A stretch of DNA of 64,000 nucleotides from Kitasatospora sp. NBC_00240 (GTDB taxonomy: Bacteria > Actinomycetota > Actinomycetes > Streptomycetales > Streptomycetaceae): NCBI RefSeq assembly GCF_026342405.1, contig NZ_JAPEMU010000001.1:248001-312000 (forward strand), read 5' to 3'. Made by a program: the position numbers and the translations under genes. The notes beneath the pieces were generated by a model. That model made no database searches. It was given only the letters and a program-made list of their open reading frames with translations, and was not told the origin of the DNA. Position 1 is the stretch's first letter; every line of letters begins with the position of its first letter. Shown here in pieces: positions 2,106 to 19,539 of this stretch.

Positions 2106-3943
2106 CGGGTGCCGTCGCGGCGGGCGACCAGCGCGGGGCGGGGCGCCGTCCCGGCCAGGGTGGCGCGGCGGACGGCCTCGGTGAAGGCGGCCAGGTCCTC
2201 GGCGTCCAGCAGGTGGCGCAGCTGCAGTTCGACGCCGAGCTTGCGGCGCAGCATGTGGACGACCCGCAGCGCGGCGAGCGAGTGGCCACCGAGGTCGAGG
2301 AAGCTGTCGTCGGGGCGGACGGTGTCCAGGCCGAGGACGGTGCGCCAGACTCCGGCGACCTGCTCGCCGACACCGTCGGCGCCGGGGGCGGGGGCCGCGG
2401 AGGCCGCGGCGGGGGCGTCGGGTTCGGCCGGCGCGGCGGGTACGGGGAGCGCCGCGTGGTCGGTCTTGCCGTTGGGGGTGAGCGGGAAGGCCGGCAGCAC
2501 GGTCACGGTGGCGGGCACCAGGTGTGCCGGCAGCCGGCCGCGCAGGTCCTCCAGCAGCTCGCCCGGGGTGACCGGGGACGCCGCGGTGACGTAGCCGGCC
2601 AGGCGCCGGTCGCCGGGGGCGGCCTCGTACACCTTGACAGCGGCTTCGGCGACGGCCGGGTGGCGGGCCAGCGCGTGTTCGATCTCGCCGAGCTCGATCC
2701 GGTAGCCGCGCAGCTTGACCTGTCGGTCGACCCGCCCGGCGTACTCCAGCAGGCCGCCGGGGCCCCGCCGGGCCTGGTCGCCGGTGCGGTACATCCGCTC
2801 CCCGGGGGTGAAGGGGCTGGCGACGAAGCGTCCGGCGGTCTGGCCGGGGCGGCGGACGTAGCCGTGGGCGATGCCCGGACCGGTGAGGTAGAGCTCGCCG
2901 GTGGCGCCCGGGGCGACGGGCCGGAGGTGCTCGTCCAGCAGGTGGGCCCCGACGCCGGGCAGCGGGGCGCCGATGTGCGGGCCGGGACCGCTGATGCGGG
3001 TGGTGGTGGAGTCGACGGTGCACTCGGTGGGGCCGTACAGGTTGAGGGCGTCCAGGCCGGCCGCGTCGATCTCCTTCCAGGTCCGCTCGGGCACCGGCTC
3101 GCCGCCCATGAACAGCCGCGGGGTGCGGGCGCCGGCCAGCGGCTCGCGGAGCAGCTCCCAGTGCGAGGGGGTGAGGTCCAGGTCGGTGACGCCGTGCCGG
3201 GCGATGACGGCCGCGAGGCGCTCCGGGTCCAGGCGCTCGGCGTCGTCCAGGACGACCAGGGTGTCGCCGCGGCAGACCCGGGCCCACTGCTGGACGGAGG
3301 CGTCGAAGGAGACGCTGGCGTTCCAGCCGACCACGGCCGGCTCGGCGCGGTAGGCGCCGCTCCGCTCCAGGCCTGCCAGTAGGGCGGCGACGTTGCCGCG
3401 GCAGACCTCGACGCCCTTGGGGGTGCCGGTGGAGCCGGAGGTGTAGATCACGTACGCCGGATCGTGGGGGGTGCCGGGCGCCGGGTCGGTAGGCGTCCCG
3501 GCGGCGTCCGGGCGGATGGTGCGCAGGCCGGGCGGCAGGGCCAGGGCGGCGGCGTCCGTGCTGATCAGCAGGGCGAGGGCGGCGTCCTCGGCCATCAGGG
3601 CGAGCCGCGGGGCCGGGTAGGCGGGGTCGAGCGGGACGTACGCGGCGCCGGCCCGCCAGACCGCGAGCAGGGCCACCACCAGCTCGGCCGTCCGGGGCAG
3701 GTGGACGCCGACCCGGTCGCCGCGGCGGATGCCGTGGGCGCGCAGGGCACCGGCAAGGACGGCGGTGCGGTGGTCGAGTTCGGCGAAGCTGAGGCTGGTG
3801 CCGGCGGCCTGTACGGCGGTGCGTGCGGGGGCGGCGGCGGCCGCCCGGAGGAAGCGGGCCACCGGGTCCTGCGCCGGGTCGAGCCGCTGCGGGTCGGCGG
3901 CGGAGGGGGCGAGGACCGGGGCGGTGTCCAGGGTGTCGGTCAT
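2102..3943 (-). CDS. NRPS adenylation-carrier didomain protein (A-PCP)
   Basis: A 613-residue stand-alone A-PCP. The A domain spans about residues 30-510, with core motif [11 protein letters not shown] (about 168), YGPTE and the A10 lysine in NGKTD. The carrier site is LGGHSL (about 549). Hand alignment to the GrsA-Phe pocket gives D-A-Q-D-F-G-L-V-D-K, close to pockets reported for Gln/Glu, so a glutamine-type substrate is the best guess. The ATG follows GAGAGG. The preceding NRPS ends in an unpaired condensation domain, so this protein very probably supplies the last module in trans. It is coupled to the thioesterase by an ATGA overlap. Confidence 0.94.
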
Positions 3944-4032
3944 GCGGGGTACCTCTCGTCTGGTCGGGATACTGGGTGGGTGCCGCGCCCCGGGGCGCGG
4001 TGCTGGTCCGAGGCCGTACGGTGGCCGGGCGC

Positions 4033-7000
4033 TCAGGCCCGGTCGGGCCCGGCGGCCACGGCGGCGGCCAGGTCGGCCAGGGCCGCCGTGTAGGCGTCGA
4101 CGAACTCGGTGGCCGTCCGGTCGGACACCACCGAGCGCTGGTGGTCGACGGCCAGCAGGACGCGGTCGGACACCGGGTCCTGGATGAGCGAGGCGCCGAA
4201 GGCGAAGCTGTTGGGTTCGTGCCGCATGGTCGGCTCGCAGCCGATCCGGGCGTCCACGATCCGGGCGGAGCTGAGCGTGCCGAGGGCGTGGAAGCGCAGG
4301 TAGCCGAACTGGCTGTCGAGCCGGGTGTCGGCCATCAGCCGGGCCAGCCGGGCGAACGGCACCCGCCGGTGCGGCATCATCTCCAGCTCCTCCCGGTGCA
4401 CGGCGCGCACCAGGGCCAGCGGGTCGCCCTCGACCGGCTCGCCGACCAGCGGGACGGTGTTGAGGAAGAGCCCCAGCACCTCGGTGCCGCCGCGCCGCTC
4501 CAGCCGGCCGTTCATCGCCAGGCCGGTGGTGACCCGCGAGCGGCCGGTGATCGCCTGCAGCGCCCGCAGGTGGGCGGCGAGCGCGACCGACTTGACCGGG
4601 ACACCGGCCGCGTCGGCGACCAGCCGCAGCTGGGCGGGCGCCGCCGGGAGCACCCGTTCCAGGGTCCGGGGCACCTCGTGCACCTCGCTGCTGCCGGGCC
4701 ACAGTTCACCGCTGACGCCGGCGAGCTTGCCTCGCCAGTAGGCGAGCGAGTCCGGGTCGGCGGCGGCCTCCCGTTCGACCGTGACGAAGTCGCGGAAGGC
4801 GGAGCGGGGGGCGGGGGTGGGCGGGCTGGCCGGGTCGGCGGCCAGTTCGGCGTGCCGCTCCAGGAGTTCGGTGAGCAGCGAGGTGAAACTCCAGCCGTCC
4901 AGGATGGCGTGGTGTTCGGACAAGGTGAGCTGGAAGACCTGGTCGGCCAGGTGCTGCACGGTGATCCGCAGCAGCGGCGGTTCCATCAGGTCGAAGGGGG
5001 TGGAGCGGTGCTGTTCGAAGACGGCGCGGACGGCCTCGTCCTGGGCGCCGGTGCCGCGCAGGTCGGCGAACTCGACGGGTGCGGGCAGTTCGCCGTGCAC
5101 GAGCTGGAGCGGTTCGCGGTAGCCGGAGAGGTCGAGTCCCGTCCGCAACACCGGGTGCCGGGTGAGGACTTCGGCCACCGCCCGGCGGAACGCGGTCTCG
5201 TCCAGGGCGGCCGAGATCCGGTAGCTGTTGACGTTGTGGTAGCTGTCGGTGCCGCCGGCGATCTCCATGTGGAAGACCATGCTGAGCTGCATGGAGACCA
5301 TCGGGTAGGCGTCGGCGAGGCCGGCGGGCAGGTCGGCGCGGTCCTCGGGGTCGAGCAGGGCGAAGGGCTGGTCGGCCGCGGCCGCGGCGGTCACCGGCTG
5401 GGCCAGCGGCAGCAGTTCGGCGACCGTGGGGGCGCCGAAGACGTCCCGCAGGGAGACCGTCCAGCCGGCCTCGTGCAGGTGGCCGGCCAGTTGGACGGCC
5501 CGGATGGAGTCGCCGCCGAGGTGGAAGAAGTCGTCGTGGACGCCGATCCCGTCGACGCCGAGCACCTGCGACCAGGCGGCGGCGAAGGCCCGTTCGGCGG
5601 GGGTGCGCGGCGGTACGTGGCGGCCGCCGGCCGCGGCGGGGGCGCCGGGTTCGGGCAGGGCGGCCCGGTCGACCTTGCCGTTGACGGTCAGCGGCAGGGC
5701 GTCCAGGACGGTGACGCTCGCCGGGATCATGTAGTCCGGCAGGGTGCGGGCCAGGAACTCGCGGACCCGTTCGGGCGCCCGGCCGGTCAGGTAGGCGGCG
5801 AGACGCTGGTCGTGGACGGTGACCACGCAGGCGTCGACGTCCGGGTGGGCGCCCAACGCGTGCTCGATCTCGCCGAGTTCGATCCGGAAGCCGCGCAGTT
5901 TCACCTGGAAGTCGGCGCGGCCGACGTACTCCAGGCCGCCGCCGGGCAGTCGCTTGGCGACGTCCCCGGTGCGGTACATCCGGGCGCCGGGGTCGTTGGC
6001 GTACGGGTCGGCGACGAACCGGCCGGCGGTGAGGCCGGGCCGCTGCCAGTACCCGTGGGCGAGGCTGCCGCCGCCGATGTACAGCTCACCGGGCACGCCC
6101 TCGGGGCAGGGCCGTAGCCAGTCGTCGAGCACCAGCGCGTCGAGGTGCGGCATCGCCTCGCCGATCAGGCTGCGTTCGAAGCCGCCGGTGGAGCCGGGAC
6201 CGGCGATGTCGAAGGTGGTGACGTGGACGGTGGTCTCGGTGATCCCGTACAGGTTGCAGATCCGGGCGGGCGGCAGCGGGTCGAGGTCGAGCCAGCGCTG
6301 GACGACGGCGGGGTCGAGGGCCTCGCCGCCGAGCATGATCTGCTTCAGCGCGGGCAGCGGCCGGGGGCGGCGGCGCAGGGCCGGTTCCAGCTGGCGCAGT
6401 GCGGACGGGGTGAGGCAGAGGTGGGACACGCCCTCCTCGTCGAGCAGTTGGGCGAACTCCTCGGGCGAGCGGCTGGTCAGGTAGGGCACCACGACCAGCC
6501 GGGCGCCGTGGTGCAGGGCGCCCCAGATCTCCCAGACGGTCCAGTCGAAGGCGTAGCTGTGGAAGAGCGTCCAGACGTCCTGCGGGCCGAAGCCGAAGTG
6601 CTCGACGCCGGCCGCCATCAGGCGGCTGACGTGCTCGTGGGCGATGGCGACGCCCTTGGGGCGGCCGGTGGAGCCGGAGGTGAAGATCACGTAGGCGGTG
6701 TCGCCCGGGCGGGCACCGGCTCGCGGGCGGGTGGCGGGCAGCGCGGCGGTGTCCGCGGCCCGGGCGGCGAGGTCGTGGCGCAGCCAGGGCCCGTCCGGCA
6801 CCCGGTCGGGCAGGTCGGTGAGGACGAGGGTGACGCCGGTGTCGCCGAACACGGTGGCCGCGCGGCCGGCCGGAGCGGCCGGGTCGACGGGGACGTACGC
6901 GGCGCCGGCCTTGAGGACGGCGAGGACGCAGACCACGATGTCGGCGGTCCGGTCGAGCAGCAGGCCGACCCGGTCGCCGTGGCGGACGCCGGCGGCGGTC

Positions 7001-8487
7001 AGTGCGTGGGCGAGGCGGTTGGCCCGCATCTCCAGCTCGGTGTAGGTGAGGGAGCGGGCGCCGTCGGTCAGCGCGACCCGTCCGCCGTGCCGGTCGGCGG
7101 CGTCCTCGAACAGCTGGTGCAGGCAGCGGCCGGCCGGGATCCGGGCGGGCCGGCCGGCGCTCGCGGGGGTGCCGAGCTCGCGCAGCGGGCGGTCCGGTCG
7201 GTCGAGGGCGGCGGCCAGCAGGTTCTGCCAGTCGGCGGCCATCCGGCGGACCGTCGCCGGGTCGAACAGGTCGGTGCGGTACTCGGCCTCGCCGCGCAGT
7301 TCGCCGCTGTCGAAGACCGACCAGGTCAGGTCGAACTTGCTGGTGCCGTTGGAGCGGACGGCCCGTTCGGCGAGGGCCTCGCCGAACCGCAGCGGGGCGG
7401 TGTCCTCGGCGTGCGCGCCGAACACCACCTGGACCAGCGGGGCGTGCTGGGCCGAGCGGTCCGGTGCCAGCCGGTCGACCAGTTGGTCGAAGGGGACGTC
7501 CAGGTAGGCGTAGCCCTCGAAGGCGACGTCCTGGACGTGCTCCAGCAGCTCGCGGAAGGTCATCGTCCGGGCGAGCCGGACCCGCAGCGGCAGCAGGTTG
7601 ACGAAGTAGCCGACCAGGTTCTCCAGTTCGGGCCGGTTGCGGGTGGTGACGGGGGTGCCGATCACCATGTCCTCGGCGCCGGTCCAGCGGTGCAGCAGCA
7701 ACGCGAAGGCGGCCAGCATGACCATGAACGGGGTGACGCCCTCGGCCTCCGCCAGCTGCTTGACCCGGGCGGCGGTGCCCGGCTCCGGCGCGAACGGCTC
7801 GGTGGCGCCGCGGTGGCTCCGGTCGGCGGGGCGGGGGCGGTCGCCGGGGAGCTCCAGCAGGCCCGGCGCCCCGTCGAGCTGGAGCTTCCAGTGGGCCAGG
7901 TGCTCCTCGAAGGACTGCGCCTGCTCCTCGGCCGCGTAGTCGGCGTACTGGGCGGTGAGCAGCGGGAGTTCGGGGTCGCGGCCGGTCACGGCGGCGGTGT
8001 AGAGCTCGGCGAGCTCCCGCTCGAAGACGTCGGCCGACCAGCCGTCCCAGACGATGTGGTGGACGACGACGGCCATGGTGGTCCGCCGCTCCCCGGTGCG
8101 GATCACCGACACCCGCAGCAGCGGCCCCTGTTCGAGGTCGAAGGGCGCGGCGGCCTCGGCGGCGATCAGCTCCTCGGTGCGCCGGGCGGTCTCCCGCTCG
8201 TCGAGGGCCCGCAGGTCGGTCACCGTGAACGGGACGGCCGGGTCGCGATGGACGTGCTGGCGCGGGCCGTCCTCGTGCAGGGCGAAGGTGGTCCGCAGGG
8301 CCTCGTGCCGGGCCACCAGGGCGCTCAGGGCAATCTCCAGATGCGCCAGGTCGAGGGCGCCGGTGAGCTCGAACACCCAGGGGATGTTGTAGGTGGCCGC
8401 TCCGGGGTTCCAGCGGTCGAGGAACCACAGGCCCCTCTGCAGCCCCGACACGGGGGCGATCCGGGCCGGCTCTTCGGTGGAGGTCAC
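4033..8487 (-). CDS. NRPS, C-A-PCP-C
   Basis: A 1484-residue synthetase. Condensation domain 1 has HHIVWDG (about residue 144), the A domain [11 protein letters not shown] (about 602) and NGKVD, the carrier LGGDSI (about 992), and a terminal condensation domain HHAILDG (about 1192). The hand-aligned A pocket is D-W-W-C-M-G-L-V-H-K, which I cannot match to a known substrate. The GTG start follows AAGGAAGGA at good spacing; a longer in-frame start at 8526 lacks a ribosome site. The terminal C domain has no A-PCP after it in cis, so it must accept an aminoacyl carrier from the downstream A-PCP protein 89 nt away. The middle of a three-protein assembly line. Confidence 0.95.
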
Positions 8488-8540
8488 TGTCCTGCTTCCT
8501 TCCTTGGGCGGACCCGGCGGGGGCACGGGCGGGTGATGGG

Positions 8541-8608: not shown

Positions 8609-11600
8609 TCATCGGGCCGTGAGGCGTTCGGCGATGGCGCTGACGGTCTTCGCCCGGAACACCACGTGCGGCGGCACCTTTGTCCCGGTCTCCCGGGACA
8701 GCCGCATCGCGACCCGGACGGCGGCCAGCGAATTGCCCCCGATCCGGAAGAAGTTGTCGTCCCGGCCGACCTGCGGCAGGTCCAGGACGGCCCGGACGGC
8801 GTCGGCCACCAGCTGCTCCATCCCGTCCAGCGCGGCGGCCGCCGAACCCGGCGCCGGCCGGGGTGCCGGGGCGGGCAGCGCCCGGCGGTCGGTCTTGCCG
8901 TTGGGGTTGAGCGGCAGGCCGTCGAGGATGTCGACGGTGGCCGGGATCATGTACTCGGGGAGCCGGCCGGCCAGCTCGGCGAGCAGGGCGTCGACGTCGG
9001 GCGGGGTGGGTCCGGCGGTGATGTAGGCGGCCAGCCGGCGGTCCCCGGGGGCCGGTTCGTGGACGGTGACCGCGGCCTCCCGGACGAGCGGGTGGCGGGT
9101 CAGGGCGTCCTCGATCTCGCCCGGTTCGACCCGGAACCCACGGATCTTGATCTGGTCGTCGATCCGTCCGGTGATCTCCAGCGTGCCGTCCTCGGCCCGG
9201 TGCCCGAGGTCCCCGGTGCGGTAGAGCCGCTCCCCCGGCCGGCCGTACGGGTGGGCGACGAAACTGCCGGCGGTCAGCGCCGAGCGGCCCAGGTAGCCGT
9301 ACGCCAACCCGCCGCCGGCGGCGTAGAGTTCGCCGCTCTCACCGGGGCCGACCGGCTGCAGGGCGGCGTCCAGGACGTGGATCTCCTTGCCGTTCAGCGG
9401 GTGACCGATGGGTATCGAGGTGCCGCCGAGGTCCTGCGGGCCGACCCGGTGGCAGGTGGTCAGGCCGAGGCTCTCCACCGGCCCGTAGCCGTTGGCGACC
9501 ACCAGTCGCGGGTAGTTCTCCAGGGCCTTGGCGACATGGGTCACCGAGGCCCGCTCCCCTGCGGTGAAGGCCACCTTCAGGTCGTCGAAGGTCTGCGGGA
9601 ACTCCTCCAGCAGGAAGTTGAACAGGCTGGCGGAGAGCTGGAGTTGGGTGACCCGGTGGCGCCGGGTGAGGGTGGCGATGGTCTCCGGGTCGGGCCGCCG
9701 GCCGGGCTGCAGCACGCAGGTGCCGCCGAACAGCAGGGCACCGTACAGCTCCAGTGCGAAGGCGTCCCAGGAGACCGGCGAGCACTGCAGCCAGACCTCG
9801 TCGGGGCCGAAGCGGGCGTAGTCCTGGCCGAGGTAGGTGGTGGTGAGCGCCCGGTGCGGGGCGGCGACGCCCTTGGGGCGGCCGGTGGAGCCGGAGGTGA
9901 ACATCACGCAGGCCAGGTCGTCGCCGGTGACCGGCAGCGCGAGGTCCTGGCCGGGGCAGCGGGCCACCTGCTCGGCCACCGCGTCCAGGTCGAGGTGGGC
10001 GGTGCCCTCGAACGGCGCGGGGGCACGGCGGTGGGTGAGGACGAGCGCGGCGCCGCTGTCCGCGACGGCGCCGGCCAGCCGGTCGGCGGGGAAGTCCGGG
10101 TCCAGCAGGGTGTAGCCGGCGCCGGTCTTCAGTACCGCGAGCAGCGCCACCACCAGGTCGTGGCCGCGTTCGGTCAGGATCGCGACGACGTCGCCCCGGC
10201 CGACGCCGCGGCCGGCCAGGAAGTGCCCGAGCCGGTTGGCCCGGGTGTTCAGCTCCGCGTAGCTGAGCGCCAGCCCGGTGTCGCCCTCGACCACGGCGGT
10301 GGCCTGCGGGGTGCGCTCCGCCCGCGCCTCGAAGAGGGTGTGCGCGGCGGGGTCGACGGCGGCGGCCAGGGTGTCCGCCCAGCTGTCGCAGAGGTCGGCG
10401 ACGGTCGCGGGGTCGAACAGGTCGCTGTCGTACTCGAAGCGGCCGGTGAAGCCGGTGCCGAGGTCGTCCACGGAGATCGACAGGTCGAACCGGGACACCT
10501 CGTTGGAGTGCAGTTCGCGGGTGACCTCGCTGTCGCCGACGGTGAGCGGGCGGGTGTCCAGCGGGTGCAGTTCGAGCACCACCTGGCAGAGCGGGTTGCG
10601 GTCCTCGGGCCGGTCCTCCAGGACGAGTCCGGTGATCTCGTCGAAGGGGGTGTCCTGGTGCCGGTAGGCGCCGATCGCCACCTCCCGGACGTGCTGGACG
10701 AGTTCACGGAAGCCCGGGTCCTCCGCGAGCCGCAGGCGCAGCGGCAGCAAATTGATGAAGTAGCCGATCAGGCCGCCCAGTTCGGTGCGTCCGCGCAGGC
10801 TCACCGGGGTGCCGAGAACCATGTCCCGCTGGCCCGAGCGGCGGTGCAGGGTCAGCGCCAGGCCGGCCAGCAGCACCATGAACGGGGTGGCGTCCTCGCT
10901 GCGGGCGAACTCGCGCACCGCGCGGGCGACCGGGGTCGGCAGCGCGAAGCGGTGGAAGGCGCCGCGGAAGGCCTGGATCTCGGGGCGGGGGTGATCGGTG
11001 GGCAGCACCGGGGTCTGCGGGGCGTCGGCGAGCGCCGCGCGCCAGTGGGCGAGCCGCTCCTCGGCGCTCTCGTCCTCGTACTGCCAGGCGCTGTAGTCGG
11101 TGTACTGGACGGGGAGTTCGGGCAGGGCGTGGTCGCGCCCCGCGCGCAGCGCCGCGTACAGCTCCTGGAGCTCCTGCTCCAGGACGGGCAGCGAGCCCTC
11201 GTCCCAGACGATGTGGTGGAACATCAGCAGCAGGGTGGTCGCCCCGTCGGCGGTGCGGACGGCGTGGGCGCGCACCAACGGGCCGGTCTCCAGGTCGAAG
11301 GGCTCCCGGGCCAGTTCGGCGACCAGCGCGTCGGGGTGCTCCGCCGGGCAGTCGAGGACGGTGAAGGGCAGCTCGATCCGCTCGTGGACGAGTTGCTCGG
11401 GACCGTTCTCGCCGAGGACGAAGGTGGTCCGCAGGCTCTGGTGCCGGGCGACCACCGTCTCCAGGGCGGCGCGCAGCAGTTCGGTCTCGACCGGACCGTG
11501 GAAACGGAAGACCCAGGGCACGTTGTAGGTGGCCGCGCCGGGGTTCCACTGCTCCAGGAACCAGAGCCCGCGCTGGAACTTGGACAGCGGCGCCCGGGTC

Positions 11601-13309
11601 AGGCCGCGGGCGGTCAGCGGCGCCTGCGCGGGGCCGGCCGAGGCGGTGACGGCGGCGGCGAACTCGGCCAGGGTCGGCGCGTCGAAGATGGTGTACGGCG
11701 ACACCATGCCGAAGACCTCGTAGACCCGGCCGACCACCCGGACGGCGGTCAGCGAGTCCCCGCCGAGGTGGAAGAAGTTGTCGTCGGCGCTGACCTCGGC
11801 GACGCCGAGCACGTCCGACCAGACCGCGGCGATCAGCTGCTCGGCGGCGGTGCGCGGCGGGCGGTGGCCGGGGCGGCGGGTCCCGGTGGTCTCGGGCGCC
11901 GGCAGCGCGGCGCGGTCGACCTTGCCGCCGGCGGTCAGCGGGAAGGCGGCCAGCACGGTGAGGGTCGCCGGGATCATGTGCTCGGGCAGCCGGCCGGCCA
12001 GGAAGGCCCGGGCCCGGGCGTAGTCGGGCGCGGGCGCGGTGGCCGAGGCGGTGACGTAGGCGGCGAGCCGGCCCTCGTGGGCGACCACGGCGCAGCCTGC
12101 GACGCCCGGGCAGGCGGCCAGGGCGACCTCGATCTCGCCGGGCTCGACCCGGAAGCCGCGGATCTTCAGCTGCTGGTCGGCCCGGCCCAGGTACTCCGGC
12201 GGGGCTCCCTCGGCGGGCCGCCGGACGAGGTCCCCGGTGCGGTACATCCGGGCGCCGGGGGTACCGGCCCAGGGGTCGGCGACGAAGCGTTCGGCGCTCG
12301 GCCCGGGCCGGCCGCAGTAGCCCCAGGCGAGCAACGGCCCGCCGATGTACAGCTCGCCGGCGGTGCCGGGCGGGCAGGGGCGCAGCCGTTCGTCGAGGAT
12401 GTGCAGGGTGCGACCGCCGAGTGCCTCGCCGATCGGCACGACGGCGGCGGTGTCGTCGCCGTCGGCGGCGTGGACGGTCGCGGTGATCACCGTCTCGGTG
12501 GGGCCGTAGGCGTTCAGCAGCGGCACGCCGGTGAGCCGCCGCCAGGTGGCCGCGGTGCCCGGGTGCAGCCGGTCGCTGCCGGAGATCATCAACCGCAGGG
12601 TGCCCGGCGCGGCGCGGCCGGGCAGGGCGGCGACCACCTCCTGGAAGTAGCCGGCGGACAGGTTGGCGACGGTCACGCCCTCGGCGTCCAACAGGTCGAG
12701 CAGGGCGGCGGGGGTGAGGAGTCGGCGCTCCGGCAGGACCAGGCAGGCCCCCGCGGCGAGCGTGCCGAGGATCTGTTCGATCGCCACGTCCACGGTGGGC
12801 CGGGCGAACTGCAGCACCACGTCGTCCCCGGTCAAGCCGAACCGGGCGACGGCGGCGGTGAGGTGCGCGGTCAGGGCGTCCAGCGGGACCAGGACGCCTT
12901 TGGGGGTGCCGGTGGTACCGGAGGTGTGGATCACGTACCCGGCCGGCCCGGCGGTGGTGGCCGCGGCGCCCGGGCGAGCGGTGAGCCGGCCGCCCGTCAG
13001 GACGGCGGCCGCGCCGGCCCCGTCCAGGATCGCCCGGTTGCGCTCCTCGGGTGCCTGCGGGTCGAGCGGGAGGTGGACCCGGCCGGCCCGCAGTACGGCC
13101 AGCATCCCGACCAGGTGGTCGAGCCGGTCGTCGGCGGTGACGGCGACGACCTGGCCCGCGGCGGTCTCCCGGGCGATCTCCCCGGCGAGGGCGCCGCTCA
13201 GCTCGTCCAGCTCGCGGTAGGTGACCGTCCGGCCGGCCCGGCGGACCGCCGGGCGGGACGGGTGGCGGCGGGCCGCCTGAAGGAAGGGGAAATCGCTTGA
13301 GGACATCAT
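8609..13309 (-). CDS. NRPS initiation protein, A-PCP-C-A-PCP
   Basis: A 1566-residue two-module synthetase. Order: starter A (HTSGTTGTPKG), carrier LGGDSL (about 515), condensation domain (about 570-1010), second A ([11 protein letters not shown] about 1138), carrier IGGNSL (about 1523). It begins with an A domain and no C domain, so it loads the first residue. Hand-aligned pockets: starter D-V-E-N-M-S-A-I-T-K, with Val instead of Phe before the pocket Asp; second D-A-L-Q-F-A-G-G-L-K. Neither matches a specificity I can name. The C-domain active-site motif reads HHIVWDEG, Glu replacing the usual Gly of HHxxxDG. The start is one of two consecutive ATGs (13309 or 13306). Confidence 0.95.
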   Translation of the reverse strand: MMSSSDFPFLQAARRHPSRPAVRRAGRTVTYRELDELSGALAGEIARETAAGQVVAVTADDRLDHLVGMLAVLRAGRVHLPLDPQAPEERNRAILDGAGAAAVLTGGRLTARPGAAATTAGPAGYVIHTSGTTGTPKGVLVPLDALTAHLTAAVARFGLTGDDVVLQFARPTVDVAIEQILGTLAAGACLVLPERRLLTPAALLDLLDAEGVTVANLSAGYFQEVVAALPGRAAPGTLRLMISGSDRLHPGTAATWRRLTGVPLLNAYGPTETVITATVHAADGDDTAAVVPIGEALGGRTLHILDERLRPCPPGTAGELYIGGPLLAWGYCGRPGPSAERFVADPWAGTPGARMYRTGDLVRRPAEGAPPEYLGRADQQLKIRGFRVEPGEIEVALAACPGVAGCAVVAHEGRLAAYVTASATAPAPDYARARAFLAGRLPEHMIPATLTVLAAFPLTAGGKVDRAALPAPETTGTRRPGHRPPRTAAEQLIAAVWSDVLGVAEVSADDNFFHLGGDSLTAVRVVGRVYEVFGMVSPYTIFDAPTLAEFAAAVTASAGPAQAPLTARGLTRAPLSKFQRGLWFLEQWNPGAATYNVPWVFRFHGPVETELLRAALETVVARHQSLRTTFVLGENGPEQLVHERIELPFTVLDCPAEHPDALVAELAREPFDLETGPLVRAHAVRTADGATTLLLMFHHIVWDEGSLPVLEQELQELYAALRAGRDHALPELPVQYTDYSAWQYEDESAEERLAHWRAALADAPQTPVLPTDHPRPEIQAFRGAFHRFALPTPVARAVREFARSEDATPFMVLLAGLALTLHRRSGQRDMVLGTPVSLRGRTELGGLIGYFINLLPLRLRLAEDPGFRELVQHVREVAIGAYRHQDTPFDEITGLVLEDRPEDRNPLCQVVLELHPLDTRPLTVGDSEVTRELHSNEVSRFDLSISVDDLGTGFTGRFEYDSDLFDPATVADLCDSWADTLAAAVDPAAHTLFEARAERTPQATAVVEGDTGLALSYAELNTRANRLGHFLAGRGVGRGDVVAILTERGHDLVVALLAVLKTGAGYTLLDPDFPADRLAGAVADSGAALVLTHRRAPAPFEGTAHLDLDAVAEQVARCPGQDLALPVTGDDLACVMFTSGSTGRPKGVAAPHRALTTTYLGQDYARFGPDEVWLQCSPVSWDAFALELYGALLFGGTCVLQPGRRPDPETIATLTRRHRVTQLQLSASLFNFLLEEFPQTFDDLKVAFTAGERASVTHVAKALENYPRLVVANGYGPVESLGLTTCHRVGPQDLGGTSIPIGHPLNGKEIHVLDAALQPVGPGESGELYAAGGGLAYGYLGRSALTAGSFVAHPYGRPGERLYRTGDLGHRAEDGTLEITGRIDDQIKIRGFRVEPGEIEDALTRHPLVREAAVTVHEPAPGDRRLAAYITAGPTPPDVDALLAELAGRLPEYMIPATVDILDGLPLNPNGKTDRRALPAPAPRPAPGSAAAALDGMEQLVADAVRAVLDLPQVGRDDNFFRIGGNSLAAVRVAMRLSRETGTKVPPHVVFRAKTVSAIAERLTAR

Positions 13310-13507: not shown

Positions 13508-14776
13508 TCAGATCTCCCCGTCGGGGGACCACACGTCCTCCGGCCCGAGCGCGTCCGGCGCGTACTTGCCGAGCGAGCTGATCAGAAGCCGCATCTCGGT
13601 GCCGAGGCATTCCACCAGGCGGATCAGACCGTCCGCCGGGTCCTCGGCGACCGCGAGCAGGGCCGCGCGGCCGAGGCCGACCGCCGTGGCGCCGAGGGCC
13701 AGGCTCTTCACCGCCCGGCTGCCCTCCCACATCCGGCCGGAGACCAGCAGCCGGCCGGGCGGCGGACCGGCCGGGCGGGTGCCGAGCCGGCGCAGGCACT
13801 CGGCGAGCGGTAGCCCGACGTGCCGGGGGAAGGCCGCGGGCGCCCAGCCGGTGCCGCCCTCGGCGCCGTCCACGGTCACCGCGTCCGCGCCGGCCTCGAC
13901 GGCCGTCCGTACGGCCTCGGCGACGTCCCGGCCCGGGTGGAGCTTGACCCAGATCCGCACCCGGGGGAAGTTGTTGCGCATCAGCCGGACCTGCTGGCGC
14001 AGGATCTCCTCGGTGAAGGTGCCGGGGCTGCTGGAGCGCAGCACCCGCTGCCCCTCGAACAGCGGGTCGAGGCCGTAGCGGTCGGCGACCCGGGCGGCCG
14101 CCGCGGCGTCCAGCACGGTCATCCCACCGAGGCCGGGCTTCGCGCCCTGCCCGACCTTCAGTTCGAAGGCGAGCCGGCCGGAGTCGAGCAGCGGCCGGGC
14201 GGCGGGGTCGCTGTGCACGAGGTTCCACACCTCGGCGTCGGCGTCCTCGGTGCTCTGCTGCACCGCGACCCCGCCGACGCCGTCGGCGAGTTGCTCGGTG
14301 TAGGCGGTGAGTCGGCCGAGCAGGGAGCGGCCCGCCGCCTCGCCGAGACGGCCGTAGCCGTTCACCGGGACGACGTTCTCCCCGATCACCATCGGGATGC
14401 CGAGCGCCCCGGCCTGCCGGCTGAGCGCCAGCCCGAGGTCGCCGCCGGCGGCGCGGGTCGAGCCGAGCGCGGAGACGTAGACGGGCGCGGTGGACCGGAG
14501 CCCGCCGATCACGGTCGTCAGGTCGACGTCCTGGTAGGTGGGTTCGCGGCCGAGGTCGATGAGCTTGGCCAGCCGCTGCTCCATGAACACCGGCGGGGCC
14601 AGGCGCAGCGCGTCCAGCCGGTCGGCCGGGCCGCCGAGGCCGTCCGGCCCGTCCGGGCCGGCGCCGAACAGCACCTGGCCGTAGTCGCCGGCCGGCGGGA
14701 ACGCGGCGGCGGCGCCGGTCCTGGCCCGCAGCCGGACGGCCTCCTCGGGGAAACCGGGGGCGGCGAGGTCGCTCAC
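13508..14776 (-). CDS. GltB-like FMN-binding protein (glutamate synthase central/FMN domain homologue)
   Basis: A 422-residue protein matching the FMN TIM-barrel domain of glutamate synthase large subunits: FELKVGQGAKPGLGG (GltB: KxAQGAKPGEGG), VTVDGAEGGTGWAP (GltB: GHDGGTGASP) and VSGRMWEGSRAVKSLALGA. The amidotransferase and beta-helix domains of GltB are absent, and the cysteine triad that binds the 3Fe-4S cluster is missing after the FMN loop. It is therefore a stripped FMN oxidoreductase, not a full glutamate synthase. The GTG start overlaps the upstream aaRS-like gene as GTGA, so the two are coupled. It may reduce an imino acid or modify the mutase-derived building block; the substrate is unknown. 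Confidence 0.85.
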   Translation of the reverse strand: MSDLAAPGFPEEAVRLRARTGAAAAFPPAGDYGQVLFGAGPDGPDGLGGPADRLDALRLAPPVFMEQRLAKLIDLGREPTYQDVDLTTVIGGLRSTAPVYVSALGSTRAAGGDLGLALSRQAGALGIPMVIGENVVPVNGYGRLGEAAGRSLLGRLTAYTEQLADGVGGVAVQQSTEDADAEVWNLVHSDPAARPLLDSGRLAFELKVGQGAKPGLGGMTVLDAAAAARVADRYGLDPLFEGQRVLRSSSPGTFTEEILRQQVRLMRNNFPRVRIWVKLHPGRDVAEAVRTAVEAGADAVTVDGAEGGTGWAPAAFPRHVGLPLAECLRRLGTRPAGPPPGRLLVSGRMWEGSRAVKSLALGATAVGLGRAALLAVAEDPADGLIRLVECLGTEMRLLISSLGKYAPDALGPEDVWSPDGEI

Positions 14777-15774
14777 GGCGAGACCACCCCGGCGAGCTTG
14801 GGGTAGGCGCTGGCCTGCCAGACGGCGTCCAGGCCGGCGACGTACCGGGTCAGGCGCTCCACACCGATGCCGAAGCCTGCGCTGGCGGGGATGCCCTCGC
14901 GGACCAGGTCGAGGTACCAGCGGTACTTCTGCGGGTTCTCGCCGGTCTCCCGCATCCGGGTGATGATGTCGGCGTACTCGTTGGTCCGCTCGCTGCCGCT
15001 GCACAGTTCGCCGTAGCCTTCGGGCGCGATCAGGTCGAAGTTGCGCAGCAGGCCGGGCTCGCCGGGGCACTCGCGGTCGTAGAAGCCGCGCGAACCCTTG
15101 GGGTAGTCGGTGACGAAGAACGGGCGGCCGGCCTTGGCGGACAGCAGTGCCTCGCCCTCCCAGTCGAGTTCGGCGTCGGGGTTCTGGTCGTGCCCGGCCG
15201 CCCGGAGGTCCAGCACGGCGTCGCTGTGCCGGACCCGCTCGAAGGCGCCCTGCAGCAGGTCGTGGAAGGCGTCGGTGTCCCGGCCGAGCTCCTCGAACTC
15301 GGCGGGCAGCGCCGCGACGGTGCTGCGCACCATGTGCACGACCAACTGCTCGACGAGTGCGGTGATCTGCTCCCGGGAGGCGCCGGCGACCTCGACGTCC
15401 AGCTGGTGGAACTCGACCAGGTGGCGATTGGTGGCGGCCGTCTCCAGGGGCTCCAGCCGGACGTTCGGGGCGACGCAGAAGATCTTGTCGAAGGCCAGCA
15501 GAGAGGCCTGCTTGTAGAGGATGGCGCTGGTCATCAGCTTGTAGCGGTGGCCGTAGAAGTCGATGTCGACCTGCTTGGAGCCCCGGGCGCCCGGGTCGGT
15601 GACCGGCCCGATGACCGGCGGCAGCAGTTCGGTGAACCCCTCCCCGCGCAGGAACTCCCGCGCGGCGCCGAGCAGGTGGTGCTGGATGCGCAGCGCGCTG
15701 CGCGTGGTCGGCGACGCCAGGTGCCTGCCGGGGTCGGCCGGCGGCGTGGGCCCTTGGGCGGTCTGCACGGTCAT
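14773..15774 (-). CDS. Class II aminoacyl-tRNA-synthetase-like enzyme (AsnRS / archaeal asparagine-synthetase type)
   Basis: A 333-residue catalytic core of the Asp/Asn-tRNA synthetase family. Motif 2 region: NVRLEPLETAATNRHLVEF then HQLDVE; motif 3: GFGIGVERL near the C-terminus. The N-terminal OB-fold anticodon-binding domain is absent, as in archaeal asparagine-synthetase-related proteins that make Asn from Asp, ATP and ammonia. The cluster context (glutamate mutase upstream, GltB-like protein coupled downstream by GTGA) suggests amidation of 3-methylaspartate, or adenylation for another transfer; this is inference. The start chosen is the ATG before TVQTAQG; an in-frame ATG 15 nt upstream (15789) is possible but has AAGG abutting it. 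Confidence 0.86.
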   Translation of the reverse strand: MTVQTAQGPTPPADPGRHLASPTTRSALRIQHHLLGAAREFLRGEGFTELLPPVIGPVTDPGARGSKQVDIDFYGHRYKLMTSAILYKQASLLAFDKIFCVAPNVRLEPLETAATNRHLVEFHQLDVEVAGASREQITALVEQLVVHMVRSTVAALPAEFEELGRDTDAFHDLLQGAFERVRHSDAVLDLRAAGHDQNPDAELDWEGEALLSAKAGRPFFVTDYPKGSRGFYDRECPGEPGLLRNFDLIAPEGYGELCSGSERTNEYADIITRMRETGENPQKYRWYLDLVREGIPASAGFGIGVERLTRYVAGLDAVWQASAYPKLAGVVSP

Positions 15775-15881
15775 GGTGCCGTTTCCCATCCTTGTAGCGG
15801 CGCGGTGCCGGTGGAATGCGGTGGGTGGAGCGCGGTGGGTGGAGTGCATGGAGTACCCGGGGAGGCGGGCGGCCGGCGGGT

Positions 15882-17162
15882 TCAGCGGGCGACGGAGATC
15901 CCGCCGGCGACCGGGGTGCGGAACGCCCGCCGGTCGTAGGTGCGCTGCACGTACGACAGCGCGCCGAGCAGTTCGGTGGAGCTGAGCGCCGGGGCGCCCG
16001 GGGCGCCGCCGGCCCGGCCGATCGGCATCGACCCGGGGTCCGACCAGTGCAGCCGCCCGTCCGGGTCGAGCCGGCTGCGGGCGCGGCCGGCGTTGTCGGG
16101 GTGCAGGCAGTACGGGACGTCCAGGTAGCCCTTGGCGAAGGCCAGCTCCAGCGCGCGGCCGATGTCCGGGTGCAGGTCGAGGACGGCGTCGATCAGGGTG
16201 CGGGCCTCGGCGCGGATCCCGGTGTCGGGGGCGGCCCCCGGCGGGCTGCGGCGCTCGCCGGCGGCGACGGCGGCCGCGCTCTCCAGGGCCCGGACGTTCT
16301 CGCCGACGGTGGGGATGCGGTACGCCTCGGCGGTGGTCTTCACGATCAGCCGGGCAGCGCCGGTACGGACGGCGAGCCGGGCCGCCTCGTCCAGCAGCAG
16401 TTGCGCGCCGCCGGGCGACAGCGGGTACACGCCCATGTAGGTGTAGATCACCACGTGCCGGTCCACGTCCGGGAGCAGTTCGGCGGCGATCGCCTGCAGG
16501 GCCGTCACCGCCTCCTCGTCCTGGCGGGTGCTGGCCTGCTGGGCGTAGCTGAGCGAGATGCTGCGCAGCCCGTGCCGGCGGAAGAAGAGGCCCTCCAGCA
16601 CGCTGAGCGCGATCAGCAGGCCAGGCGGGCAGAGCTGGCCCATCATGCAGCCGCCGAAGGTCTCCAGGTGCGGCTCGGCGCCGTCGGCCCGGGAGGCGGC
16701 CAGCAGCTCGCAGCAGCGTCTCCAGCTGTCGACGGCCTCGGACAGCGGGGTGCGGCTGTAGGGCAGGCAGTACGAGACGGGGCCGCCCTCGGTGGCGTGC
16801 AGGCCGGCGGCGAGCAGCGCCGCGAAGATCTTCTCGGGGCGGGCCGAGCCGTGCCGGACCTGGACCGGGAAGCTGTCGTCGGCGACGCCGTGCAGCACGG
16901 ACCGGGTGACGCCGGGCGGGTGGCTGATGATCGGGTAGCCGTTGAGCGGGACACCCTCGGCGACGGCCCGGCGGGCGGTGGCCAGCTCGCCGGTGCGGGT
17001 GTAGCTGTCCAGGGTGACGGTGCCGACGGTGGTGGCGGCCGCGTTCCTGGTGGCGAGCAGGCCGGCCCGCATCCGGTCGGGCTCGCTCATTCCCATCCGT
17101 GGCTGCACCACCAGCGCGCCGGCCGCCCGGGCGCGGGCCACGAACGGCCCGAACGCCGTCAC
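15882..17162 (-). CDS. Glutamate (methylaspartate) mutase catalytic subunit E
   Basis: A 426-residue subunit E of the adenosylcobalamin-dependent glutamate mutase, which interconverts L-glutamate and (2S,3S)-3-methylaspartate. The conserved substrate-binding stretch HATEGGPVSYCLPY keeps the Glu and two Tyr equivalent to E171, Y177 and Y181 of the clostridial enzyme, and QVRHG keeps an Arg of the arginine claw. It is shorter than the catabolic enzyme (about 480). No methylaspartase gene is nearby, which argues for biosynthetic rather than fermentative use, as in friulimicin and vicenistatin clusters. The GTG start overlaps the S-subunit stop as GTGA. Confidence 0.9.
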   Translation of the reverse strand: MTAFGPFVARARAAGALVVQPRMGMSEPDRMRAGLLATRNAAATTVGTVTLDSYTRTGELATARRAVAEGVPLNGYPIISHPPGVTRSVLHGVADDSFPVQVRHGSARPEKIFAALLAAGLHATEGGPVSYCLPYSRTPLSEAVDSWRRCCELLAASRADGAEPHLETFGGCMMGQLCPPGLLIALSVLEGLFFRRHGLRSISLSYAQQASTRQDEEAVTALQAIAAELLPDVDRHVVIYTYMGVYPLSPGGAQLLLDEAARLAVRTGAARLIVKTTAEAYRIPTVGENVRALESAAAVAAGERRSPPGAAPDTGIRAEARTLIDAVLDLHPDIGRALELAFAKGYLDVPYCLHPDNAGRARSRLDPDGRLHWSDPGSMPIGRAGGAPGAPALSSTELLGALSYVQRTYDRRAFRTPVAGGISVAR

Positions 17163-17602
17163 AACAGCACTCCGGCCGGCAGCGAGCGGACGTAGGAGCG
17201 GAACGCGTCCACCGAGGCGGCCTCCTCGAAGACCGCGTCGAAGCCGGCCTCCTGCAGGGCCCGGGCGCGGGCGCCGTCCTCCGCCCCGGCGATGCCCAGC
17301 TTCCCGCCGATGACGATCGGCGTGCCGCGCAGCTCCGGGCAGGCGCGCAGGCCTGCGACGACCCGCAGGCCGTCGTTGTAGCCGTGCCCGTTGACGCTGC
17401 TGAGGACGATCAGGTCGGGTCGGCGCCGCCGGCATTCGGCGGCCAGGACGTCGTCCGGGACGCACGGGCCGAGATTCACCACCCGGTGCCCGAGTTCTTC
17501 CAGCAACAGCTGGAGAAACACCAGATTCCAGGTGTGCGAATCGGAGACCATGGTGGTCACCACGACATTCAGCCCGGCTTTTCCGGCCTTTCCACGCTCC
17601 AC
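17159..17602 (-). CDS. Glutamate mutase B12-binding subunit S
   Basis: A 147-residue Rossmann-like cobalamin-binding subunit. It has the motif region SDSHTWNLVF, a VLSSVNGHG loop (the SxL region) and VIGGKLG (the GG region), in the order and spacing of glutamate mutase S. The lower-ligand motif DxHxxG is altered: Asp and His are kept, but Gly is Asn. The GTG start follows GAGGGG at ideal spacing. First gene of the building-block segment, immediately downstream of the regulator region, and coupled to subunit E. Function with E: radical carbon-skeleton rearrangement of glutamate. Confidence 0.9.
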   Translation of the reverse strand: MERGKAGKAGLNVVVTTMVSDSHTWNLVFLQLLLEELGHRVVNLGPCVPDDVLAAECRRRRPDLIVLSSVNGHGYNDGLRVVAGLRACPELRGTPIVIGGKLGIAGAEDGARARALQEAGFDAVFEEAASVDAFRSYVRSLPAGVLL

Positions 17603-17841: not shown

Positions 17842-19167
17842 TCACCCGGCGAGGGCCTCCAACAGGGGGTACGGTCCCGAGCGCTCCTCGCTGCGCGCGG
17901 CCCCCGCCGACAGCCAGCTCTCCCGCTCCTCCCGGCACAGCACCCGGAAGAGGTTGAGCACTGCGAACCGCACCCCGCCCTGGCCGCCGCCCACCGTCCG
18001 CACCAGCCCGCGGGAGAGCAGTTCGTGCACCACGGCCAGGCATTCCTGGACGGGCCGGCCGCTCAGCGCCACCGCCTCCTCCACCGTCCACCCCTGGTCC
18101 CCGTCCGCCAGCAGGCCCAGCAGGGCGCGCTGACGGGGGCTCAGCAGGTGCAGCGCGCCGGTCAGCGAGTCACGCACGTCCCCGCGTTCGTGGCAGAGCG
18201 GGGACGGCGCGGTGAGGGTGAAGGGGTTGCCGCGCAGCCGGGCCATCAGCTGGCCGGGCGACTGCACCAGGGTCCAGCCAGCCGCGAGTTCCAGCGCGCC
18301 GGGCAGGCCGTCCAGGTACCGGCAGAGCGCGCCGACCGCCGCGGCCTCCTCCCGTCCGAGCCGGAACCCGGGCCGCACCCGGCGGACGTGCGACAGCAGC
18401 AGCCGCACCGCTGCGACCTCGGCCAGCCGCTGCGGGTCGTCGTCCAGTTCGGGGGCCGGGGTCTCCAGCGGCCCGAGCGGGATCACCTGTTCGCCGTCCA
18501 GCCCCTGCGGCACCCGGGAGGTGATCAGCACCCGCAGTCCCGCGCAGCGGTGGAACAGGTCGTCCAGCGTGGAGGAGTTGACGCCGCCGTCGGCGCCGTC
18601 GAGCACCAGCAGGGTGGGCCGCTCGCCGATCTGGTCGGCGAGCCCCTCCGCCGGGCCGGGGCGGCCCACCAGGTCGGCGAAGGCCGCCCCGGGGCCGCCG
18701 GGCTCGCGGTCGCCGCAGGCCACCCAGCGCACCGCCCAGCGCACCGAGTCGTGCAGGCGCCGGGCCACCTCCAGGGCGAGCCGGGTCTTGCCCACCCCGC
18801 CGAGGCCGACCACCGACACCAGCCGGTCGCCGTGCACGGTGAGGACGTCGGCCAGCACCTCGGCCTCGGTGCTCCGGCCGACGATCGCGTTGCGGGCGGC
18901 CGGTGGCGCGGCGGGCTCCTCCACCGGCGCCTGCTGCCGGGCGGCCGCCTCGAAGGCGGCCCTGCTCCGCCCCTCCAGCCGCAGCGCGTCGGCAAGCAGC
19001 CGCACGGTCTCGTGCCGGGGGCGGTGGACGCGTCCCGTCTCCATGTCGCGGATCGCCCGCACGCTCAGCGTCGCGTGGTCGGCCAGGCCCTGCTGGGTCA
19101 GCCCGACACGCTCCCGCCGTACCTTGAGCAACTCGCCAAAACTCGACACCGGCTGACCGCCGTCCAT
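17842..19167 (-). CDS. XRE-family HTH / NB-ARC-type ATPase regulator
   Basis: A 441-residue transcription regulator. The N-terminal XRE helix-turn-helix (about residues 8-65) includes RRERVGLTQQGLADHATLS. The NTPase module follows, with Walker A GLGGVGKT (about 122) and Walker B LLVLDGADG. A winged-helix-like segment lies after about residue 330. The start is the ATG after AAAGGGGGGC; longer in-frame starts lack a site. It precedes the biosynthetic genes on the same strand and is the only regulator in the cluster, so it is probably pathway-specific. The NTPase suggests signal-dependent activation as in other STAND regulators. The ligand is unknown. The usual long tetratricopeptide C-terminus of SARP/LAL-like STAND proteins is absent. 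Confidence 0.85.
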   Translation of the reverse strand: MDGGQPVSSFGELLKVRRERVGLTQQGLADHATLSVRAIRDMETGRVHRPRHETVRLLADALRLEGRSRAAFEAAARQQAPVEEPAAPPAARNAIVGRSTEAEVLADVLTVHGDRLVSVVGLGGVGKTRLALEVARRLHDSVRWAVRWVACGDREPGGPGAAFADLVGRPGPAEGLADQIGERPTLLVLDGADGGVNSSTLDDLFHRCAGLRVLITSRVPQGLDGEQVIPLGPLETPAPELDDDPQRLAEVAAVRLLLSHVRRVRPGFRLGREEAAAVGALCRYLDGLPGALELAAGWTLVQSPGQLMARLRGNPFTLTAPSPLCHERGDVRDSLTGALHLLSPRQRALLGLLADGDQGWTVEEAVALSGRPVQECLAVVHELLSRGLVRTVGGGQGGVRFAVLNLFRVLCREERESWLSAGAARSEERSGPYPLLEALAG

Positions 19168-19539
19168 GCCAGCCCCCCTTTCCTCGCGTTCGGACAACAC
19201 CCTCGGAAGCTCCGGTTCGGCCCGAGACTGACGACCTCGGTCGTGCGCCCAAGGCGCCGGGGACTGGGCCCGCGCGGTTCGGCCGGCCCGGATCCCGGTT
19301 TCGGCTGTAGCCACTGGACCGGTTCCCCTTACGACCGCGATGCTCCACGCCCGGGTTCTACGCGGGATCAACGGCCGATCACCGTGCCCGGCGCCGCCGT
19401 CCCGCACCCGCCCGGCCGGGCCGTCCGCCGCCGGGAACGACCGCGGTGCGGCGCCCCGGGACGCTCGGTCCGGGGCGCCGCACCGCGGCGGTTCAGCTCG
19501 GCGCCGGGCTCCCGACGCCCTGCCGGGAGGAGCGGGAGG
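19168..19539. other. Intergenic region upstream of the regulator
   Basis: The 372-bp gap holds the regulator promoter region (minus strand) and the strong hairpin at 19441-19488 that ends the metalloprotease transcript. No other open frame or repeat stands out. Confidence 0.6.
19441..19488 (-). terminator. 19-bp perfect hairpin after the metalloprotease gene
   Basis: Arm ccgcggtgcggcgccccgg at 19441-19459 pairs perfectly with 19470-19488 across a 10-nt loop. It sits 52 nt past the metalloprotease stop and separates that gene from the NRPS-cluster regulator. Confidence 0.85.

What the first reader, a model, noticed from the sequence alone, without database searches (positions are those of the whole stretch)
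13508..17602. Mutase + AsnRS-like + GltB-like cassette: a probable new route to an amidated or modified 3-methylaspartate
Glutamate mutase S and E lie directly next to a stand-alone aaRS-like amidating-type enzyme and a coupled FMN GltB-like protein, all upstream of NRPS genes on the same strand. Known: glutamate mutase gives 3-methylaspartate; aaRS-like cores without anticodon domains can make Asn from Asp. Inference: the cassette makes 3-methylasparagine (or a reduced/aminated derivative) for the peptide. I know of no characterised pathway with this exact set.
Basis: partly seen in the sequence, partly recalled or inferred. Interest (0 to 1): 0.85.

Follow-up and report, generated by a model that had tools for sequence, protein, structure and literature searches.

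The report
Portable cassette for methylated asparagine units
Four neighbouring genes very probably turn glutamate into beta-methylasparagine, an unusual building block for a peptide; the same gene set is already known from the antibiotic streptolydigin, but the job of one of its enzymes looks different from what has been published.

Summary
The four genes are real: glutamate mutase S and E, a stand-alone AsnRS-like protein (asparagine-synthetase-A type) and a GltB-like FMN protein, just upstream of NRPS genes.
Added here: (1) The set is portable: of the 80 best related loci, 80 hold AsnA+GltB and 68 all four, beside different NRPS types. (2) In 249 family genomes AsnA and GltB occur in the same 45; the mutase in 42 of these and 48 others. 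So the flavoprotein goes with the amidase, not the mutase; it also lacks Fe-S cysteines and glutaminase domain, against its published role. (3) In six loci a LeuA-type module stands where the mutase usually is. (4) The one A domain found around S. lydicus's genes (DALQIGGGF) resembles NRPS1 module 2 here (DALQFAGGL), which I predict loads the product.
Unresolved: what the flavoprotein does. No product or assay exists.

The parts
17159..17602 (-). GlmS-like: cobalamin-binding small subunit of glutamate (methylaspartate) mutase, 147 aa
   Evidence: PF02310; weak PDB match 1b1a, 24.5 bits; D and H of the D-x-H motif kept in 100 and 101 of 101 rows
15882..17162 (-). GlmE-like: catalytic large subunit of glutamate mutase, 426 aa, GTG start overlapping the GlmS stop
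   Evidence: PF06368; PDB 6h9e_B 112 bits; R22, R103, H104, E125, Y131, Y135, K275 and E279 the same in 115 of 115 rows
14773..15774 (-). AsnA/SlgZ-like: stand-alone AsnRS catalytic core, predicted 3-methylaspartate beta-amide synthetase, 333 aa
   Evidence: NF005052 over cut-off; PDB relatives include archaeal asparagine synthetase A 3p8t/1nnh (AsnRS 1x54 scores higher); K88, R106, E108, Q124, D126 the same in 126 of 126 rows
13508..14776 (-). GltB/SlgE3-like: stand-alone FMN-barrel protein, 422 aa, GTG start overlapping the AsnA stop
   Evidence: PF01645/PF01070; AlphaFold model pLDDT 83.7, pTM 0.86, the 50 rows shown are FMN barrels with Z 25.9-27.8; C-x5-C-x4-C in 0 of 127 rows; same 45 of 249 genomes as AsnA
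8609..13309 (-). NRPS1, A-T-C-A-T; its second A domain (8876-10333, code DALQFAGGL) is the predicted loader of the cassette product
   Evidence: Pfam; code; 58% identical to the S. lydicus A domain
4033..8526 (-). NRPS2, C-A-T-C (A-domain code DWWCMGLVH)
   Evidence: Pfam, code
2102..4702 (-). ORF with an A-T unit (A domain from 2447, code DAQDFGLVD); a thioesterase domain follows in another frame (ORF 1215-3287)
   Evidence: Pfam, code
17842..19407 (-). HTH/AAA-type regulator ORF upstream of the cassette; an ORF cluster whose representative L072:5445-6800 has the same Pfam domains recurs in 23 of the 80 related loci (crude gene calls)
   Evidence: Pfam; ORF clusters

Best explanation
The cassette supplies a beta-methylasparagine unit to the adjacent NRPS. 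GlmS/GlmE (coenzyme B12) rearranges L-glutamate to 3-methylaspartate; the AsnRS-like enzyme adenylates its beta-carboxylate and amidates it (archaeal AsnA chemistry, no tRNA); NRPS1 module 2 (DALQFAGGL) loads the product. The GltB-like flavoprotein is a constant partner of the amidation step and not a glutamate supply for the mutase; most likely it either sets stereochemistry by reversible oxidation to the imine/enamine or releases ammonia for AsnA. Shown here: gene content, kept active-site residues, co-occurrence, A-domain link. Inferred: every reaction, the product, the module assignment, and the flavoprotein's task.
For: Mutase, AsnA and GltB families and residues. S. lydicus 103 (identified by its chromosome length of 8,201,357 bp) holds all four at 61-67% identity within 8 kb beside type I PKS motifs, a dTDP-glucose dehydratase and a glycosyltransferase-like gene; streptolydigin's tetramate is fed by 3-methylaspartate and involves AsnRS-like SlgZ (passages); its N-methyl amide is recalled. 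The one A domain found in that 100 kb has code DALQIGGGF. A domains scoring >=470 bits against it occur in 40 of 249 genomes, 35 of them with AsnA+GltB, 31 within 60 kb on one contig. AsnA and GltB: same 45 of 249; AsnA also in 11 of 11 further GltB genomes tested, of the 56.
Against: No product, enzyme assay or structure is available. The A-domain codes fit a Val-like pocket with a polar residue, which suits beta-methylasparagine but does not prove it. 10 of 45 AsnA+GltB genomes lack a streptolydigin-type A domain at 470 bits (a cut-off set after seeing a gap between 440 and 472 bits), and many loci carry another code family (YYWG); 5 genomes have such an A domain without the pair. In six loci there is no mutase in the stretch but a LeuA-type gene, so the substrate there may be another aspartate analogue. 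In S. lydicus the mutase and AsnA-GltB pairs are on opposite strands. The mutase subunits fall below NCBIfam equivalog cut-offs.
Confidence: 0.8

Rival explanations
1. The GltB-like protein is, as published for SlgE3, a glutamate synthase that makes Glu for the mutase; the rest is as above.
For: Stated for SlgE3 in PMC5357945 (passages); the sequence profile matches GltS among others; that overexpressing slgE3 raises titre is recalled only.
Against: No glutaminase domain found by Pfam at E <= 0.001 and C-x5-C-x4-C in 0 of 127 rows. 36 genomes have a GlmE of >=50% identity and no GltB-like match at E <= 1e-20, while GltB-like proteins track AsnA 45 of 45 and persist in genomes where no mutase was found.
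Confidence: 0.08
2. The final monomer is not beta-methylasparagine but an oxidised or otherwise modified derivative made by the FMN enzyme, for example a dehydro or cyclised residue.
For: An FMN-barrel protein of the hydroxyacid oxidase/IDI-2/GltS kind always accompanies AsnA in the sets examined.
Against: Streptolydigin, made with the same set, keeps a saturated 3-methylaspartate amide (recalled structure); the window's A domain groups with streptolydigin's.
Confidence: 0.12
3. The cassette supplies plain 3-methylaspartate (as in friulimicin-type lipopeptides) and AsnA is incidental.
For: Glutamate mutase alone gives 3-methylaspartate in known clusters (recalled).
Against: No Asp-type (DLTK) code among the eight A domains read in the window cluster (four in the window, four in L052); AsnA is present in 80 of 80 loci.
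Confidence: 0.05

Closest known systems
Streptolydigin precursor genes slgE1-slgE2-slgE3 and slgZ (Streptomyces lydicus)
   Same: Same four protein families, 61-67% identical; related A domain with a similar code
   Different: There PKS genes with one A domain, and the mutase and AsnA-GltB pairs on opposite strands; here one four-gene same-strand cassette followed by multimodular NRPS genes. The published role of SlgE3 is not supported by domain content or distribution.
Archaeal asparagine synthetase A (AS-AR, 3P8T/1NNH)
   Same: AsnRS core without anticodon domain; shares the LLP.I..P.TDP and QLD signatures
   Different: Trp (319) in 126 of 126 rows where 1NNH has Ala and the AsnRS chains shown have Arg; predicted substrate 3-methylaspartate
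Ferredoxin-/NADPH-dependent glutamate synthase GltB
   Same: FMN-barrel signature K-x2-Q-G-A-K-P-G
   Different: No Fe-S cysteine motif, no glutaminase domain found; Met/Leu replaces the Gln of GltS after the GG
Omnipeptin and lipopeptin (peptides reported with methylasparagine)
   Same: Omnipeptin contains beta-methyl-asparagine (PMC6710260, passages); lipopeptin A/B from Streptomyces are given a MeAsn residue (PMC10172682, passages)

Membership tests
AdoCbl-dependent glutamate (methylaspartate) mutase | S subunit with cobalamin-binding D-x-H motif | tested here: met
   D in 100 and H in 101 of 101 rows; the G later in the motif of 1b1a is N here
AdoCbl-dependent glutamate (methylaspartate) mutase | E subunit with substrate-binding Arg, Glu, Tyr, Lys residues | tested here: met
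   Aligned to 6h9e, the same in 115 of 115 rows; that these are the catalytic residues is recalled
AdoCbl-dependent glutamate (methylaspartate) mutase | NCBIfam equivalog cut-off | tested here: not met
   144 bits against 390 (E) and 41 against 136 (S); Pfam cut-offs met. So it is filed as mutase-like, a divergent branch
Archaeal-type asparagine synthetase A | AsnRS catalytic core without anticodon-binding domain; curated family score | tested here: met
   Only PF00152 found in the 358-aa ORF; NF005052 459 bits, 368 needed
Archaeal-type asparagine synthetase A | Amidates the beta-carboxylate of aspartate with ammonia and ATP | not testable with these tools
   Needs an assay
Glutamate synthase (GltS) | 3Fe-4S cluster cysteines | tested here: not met
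   0 of 127 rows with C-x5-C-x4-C; the motif is recalled
Glutamate synthase (GltS) | N-terminal glutaminase domain | tested here: not met
   Gene of 422 aa; in its 520-aa ORF Pfam finds only PF01645 and PF01070 at E <= 0.001
Glutamate synthase (GltS) | 2-oxoglutarate-binding Lys/Gln/Arg residues | tested here: inconclusive
   Two Lys kept, Gln replaced by Met/Leu; Arg lies in a gapped stretch; residue roles are recalled
Streptolydigin-type methylaspartamide cassette (slgE1-E3, slgZ) | All four homologues together with a streptolydigin-type A domain | tested here: met
   Window and S. lydicus 103; SlgE3 equated with the GltB-like gene by elimination
Streptolydigin-type methylaspartamide cassette (slgE1-E3, slgZ) | Product residue is an amide of 3-methylaspartate | not testable with these tools
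   Product of the window cluster unknown

The most novel reading that the evidence does not exclude
AsnA and the GltB-like flavoprotein form an undescribed two-enzyme beta-alkylasparagine synthase in which the flavin either inverts a stereocentre through an imine/enamine or channels ammonia; it is fed interchangeably by glutamate mutase or by a LeuA/LeuCD/transaminase-type module. The published function of SlgE3 would then be wrong.
Probability: 0.4. Interest if true: 0.7.

Novelty: new member of a known kind. Interest (0 to 1): 0.5.

Why it matters
It gives a gene signature (AsnA+GltB, with or without mutase) and an A-domain code for finding beta-methylasparagine-type peptides in actinomycetes, and it turns a published enzyme role (SlgE3 as glutamate synthase) into a directly testable question. 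The authors of PMC6710260 (2019) called theirs, to their knowledge, the first bacterial NRPS product with beta-methyl-asparagine (passage; but lipopeptins with MeAsn date from 1980 by PMC10172682, passage), while AsnA+GltB is present in 45 of 249 genomes drawn from the window's family, 42 of them with a mutase too.

Tried and rejected
Literature: searches gave 0 papers; the listings (titles and starts of abstracts, not the papers) showed no paper on this gene set as a route to beta-methylasparagine, apart from PMC5357945 again in 89; the streptolydigin lead was recalled and then searched. These cover only open-licence PMC papers, and lists were cut (20 of 57; 38: 5 of 6,482; 39: 30 of 138; 43: 15 of 55; 44: 20 of 28; 89: 20 of 41).

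Rejected: macrolactam-type use (3-methylaspartate decarboxylated to 3-aminoisobutyrate), because the window cluster is NRPS and none of the four genes is a decarboxylase; plain 3-methylaspartate supply (see rivals); an EF-P-type or tRNA-aminoacylating role for the AsnRS-like protein (no anticodon domain found; two AsnA models lead the list). The idea that the pair acts only on 3-methylaspartate from the mutase failed: one search found no mutase in 5 of 9 genomes searched (10 asked, 1 not held; their completeness is not told), and none in G135 and G176 (G199, also without, is a fragmented assembly).

Weak points: loci L032-L211 overlap (one genome can occur as a named and an unnamed locus), so the 147/6/5 are not independent. 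A-domain codes were read by aligning to hand-mapped positions, not by a specificity tool. Genome searches score only some first-look candidates (6-8 a genome; all in 42 and 95), so absences there are not final. Thresholds differ: E <= 1e-20 for GltB and GlmE, 1e-60 for AsnA. Some GltB matches are broken or in pieces (G039, G074, G124, one copy in G118). Of the 234 relatives only the best 80 were kept. Alignment A1 held wrong-strand translations and was discarded for A2. Fold searches list hydroxyacid oxidases and, IDI-2, not GltS; absence from those lists shows nothing.
Full report
WHAT IS THERE. Four minus-strand genes lie in order: GlmS (17159-17602), GlmE (15882-17162), AsnA-like (14773-15774), GltB-like (13508-14776), followed by NRPS1 (A-T-C-A-T, 8609-13309) and NRPS2 (C-A-T-C, 4033-8526). 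GlmE begins at a GTG that overlaps the stop of GlmS, and GltB at a GTG that overlaps the stop of AsnA. The window lies in a 10.4 Mb genome; the best-matching named locus is from Kitasatospora indigofera JCM 4646 (GltB 96% identical).

THE CASSETTE IS COMMON AND PORTABLE. A scan of one genome for each of 84,980 species with GltB alignment A2 found 234 stretches encoding a relative; the best 80 were kept, from Kitasatospora, Streptomyces, Lentzea, Kribbella, Micromonospora, Nonomuraea and others. Of these 80, all hold AsnA; 68 hold all four genes, 3 AsnA+GlmE+GltB, 9 AsnA+GltB only, some of these cut by contig ends. AsnA ends within 60 bases of the GltB start on the same strand in 69 of 80. The neighbouring NRPS genes differ: of 20 loci, 10 share NRPS1 with the window at 64% identity or more and 10 do not (A-domain codes). 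Some loci have no NRPS match within 10 kb; ATP-grasp ligases were found in two of these, L091 and L147.

ASNA AND GLTB ARE THE CORE, THE MUTASE IS REPLACEABLE. On the same 249 family genomes GltB-like proteins (E <= 1e-20) occur in 45, AsnA-like (E <= 1e-60) in 45, and these are the same 45; GlmE (E <= 1e-20) occurs in 90: in 42 of the 45 and in 48 others. Of the 48, 36 have a GlmE of at least 50% identity and 12 only a distant one. AsnA is also in 11 of 11 further GltB genomes tested, of the 56 with GltB; one is G486, whose 20 kb locus lacks it. G065 likewise has AsnA on another contig. Of 291 genomes across the phylum, AsnA is in 2 and a GltB of >=65% identity in the same 2, the window's own included; two further GltB matches at 36% identity lie in genomes without an AsnA match.

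A SECOND SUPPLY MODULE. Of 180 fetched loci (L032-L211), 158 have AsnA and GltB by tblastn: 147 with GlmE, 6 with a LeuA-type (HMGL-like) gene beside GltB, 5 with neither in the stretch, and 0 with both (one genome can be counted twice). The six (L090, L099, L138, L151, L192, L193) have the LeuA-like gene; LeuCD-like genes were found in five of them and a class IV transaminase in five, some stretches being cut. In L151 the LeuC-, LeuD- and transaminase-like proteins pass NCBIfam cut-offs (3-isopropylmalate dehydratase, branched-chain transaminase); the LeuA-like protein does not. No mutase was found in the whole genomes of L090, L138, L151, L192 and L193; L099's genome has one on another contig. 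No mutase was found either for L112 and L125, where no LeuA-type gene was seen in the stretch. I infer an alternative way to a beta-alkyl aspartate; the module could instead feed another residue.

THE LINK TO STREPTOLYDIGIN. G383 has a chromosome of 8,201,357 bp, the length given for S. lydicus 103 (start of the abstract of PMC5357945). There GlmS and GlmE (plus strand) and GltB and AsnA (minus strand) lie within 8 kb at 61, 65, 67 and 67% identity. In the 100 kb fetched are six KS motifs and one A-domain core motif, and near the cassette a dTDP-glucose dehydratase (over cut-off), a glycosyltransferase-like and a P450-like protein (below cut-off). [quoted passage not shown] I equate GltB with SlgE3 by elimination: no other glutamate-synthase signature was found in the 100 kb. 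The J. Bacteriol. 2011 paper on precursor supply was not held; I saw only its citation.

THE A-DOMAIN CODE. The only A domain detected in the S. lydicus 100 kb has code DALQIGGGF. The window's NRPS1 module 2 is DALQFAGGL, 58% identical. In a tree of 289 A domains from the fetched loci, 42 Q-type, 21 H-type (such as DALHMGGIF), 5 DAFHLGAMV (all from loci of the LeuA type) and 14 others form one clade of 82 (support 0.859); 47 of a second clade of 50 have a YYWG code (0.987). These codes look like Val codes with a polar residue (Q, H, Y) where Val codes have W (recalled), as expected for beta-methylasparagine. A test not restricted to cassette loci: the S. lydicus A domain scores >=470 bits in 40 of 249 genomes; 35 have AsnA+GltB, 31 of them within 60 kb on one contig; 5 do not, and 10 AsnA+GltB genomes lack such a domain. 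The cut-off was chosen after seeing the gap between 440 and 472 bits.

THE ENZYMES. Mutase: the residues counted after alignment to 6h9e are kept in 115 of 115 GlmE rows. AsnA: K88, R106, E108, Q124 and D126 are the same in 126 of 126 rows, an AspRS/AS-AR pattern (recalled); W319 is also the same in 126 of 126, where 1NNH has Ala and the AsnRS chains shown have Arg. GltB: K207, Q210, K213 and K278 the same in 127 of 127, Met/Leu at 219 where GltS has Gln, C-x5-C-x4-C in no row; the model (pLDDT 83.7, pTM 0.86) is an FMN barrel near hydroxyacid oxidases and IDI-2, Z 25.9-27.8 in the rows shown. It thus lacks the parts by which GltS takes ammonia from Gln and electrons from ferredoxin (roles recalled).

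WHAT THE FLAVOPROTEIN MAY DO. It goes with AsnA, is found where no mutase was found, and streptolydigin's residue is recalled as not oxidised. That favours a redox-neutral or auxiliary task: inversion at C-alpha or C-beta through an imine/enamine (about 0.35), ammonia release for AsnA (about 0.25), glutamate supply (about 0.1), other (0.3). These are judgements, not results.

VERDICT. The family-level facts (constant AsnA-GltB pair, replaceable mutase, A-domain code) are the interesting part. I found no description of them in the searches named under Tried and rejected.

Noticed in passing
L086:12385-13698; L091:12226-13617; L147:1246-7244; also L095, L103, L107, L109: Cassette loci without NRPS match: a Lys/Orn-type N-oxygenase (Pfam on L086; BLAST cluster 11 adds L091, L095, L103, L107, L109, L147), ATP-grasp/L-amino-acid ligases (Pfam on L091 and L147), and in L147 a divergent MetRS-like protein with HIGH motif (216 bits, cut-off 553). 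May be dipeptide antimetabolites, or N-N bond-forming enzymes (recalled resemblance).
   Followed up: partly
L113, L119, L148, L161, L163, L181, L182, L203: A group with mutase genes on the opposite strand to AsnA-GltB and GlmE only 48-52% identical to the window's; in L113 two ATP-grasp proteins.
   Followed up: no
L112, L114, L120, L125, L128, L134, L149: Seven loci share, downstream of GltB, ORF clusters 15 and 16 (in L112 a PreATP-grasp protein and an Orn/DAP-decarboxylase-like PLP protein by Pfam); no mutase was found in the genomes of L112 and L125.
   Followed up: no
G000:C1:228001-248000 (L052), left of the window: The cluster continues beyond the window edge with a 4448-aa ORF holding four A domains (codes DAYFSGVTF, DTEDMGIVD, DADEAGLVD, DAYFGGLTA), a 70-aa ORF and others; a P450 lies at window 58-1239.
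   Followed up: partly
window 19540-22365, minus strand: A 941-aa ORF with DUF11 and CARDB matches upstream of the cluster.
   Followed up: no
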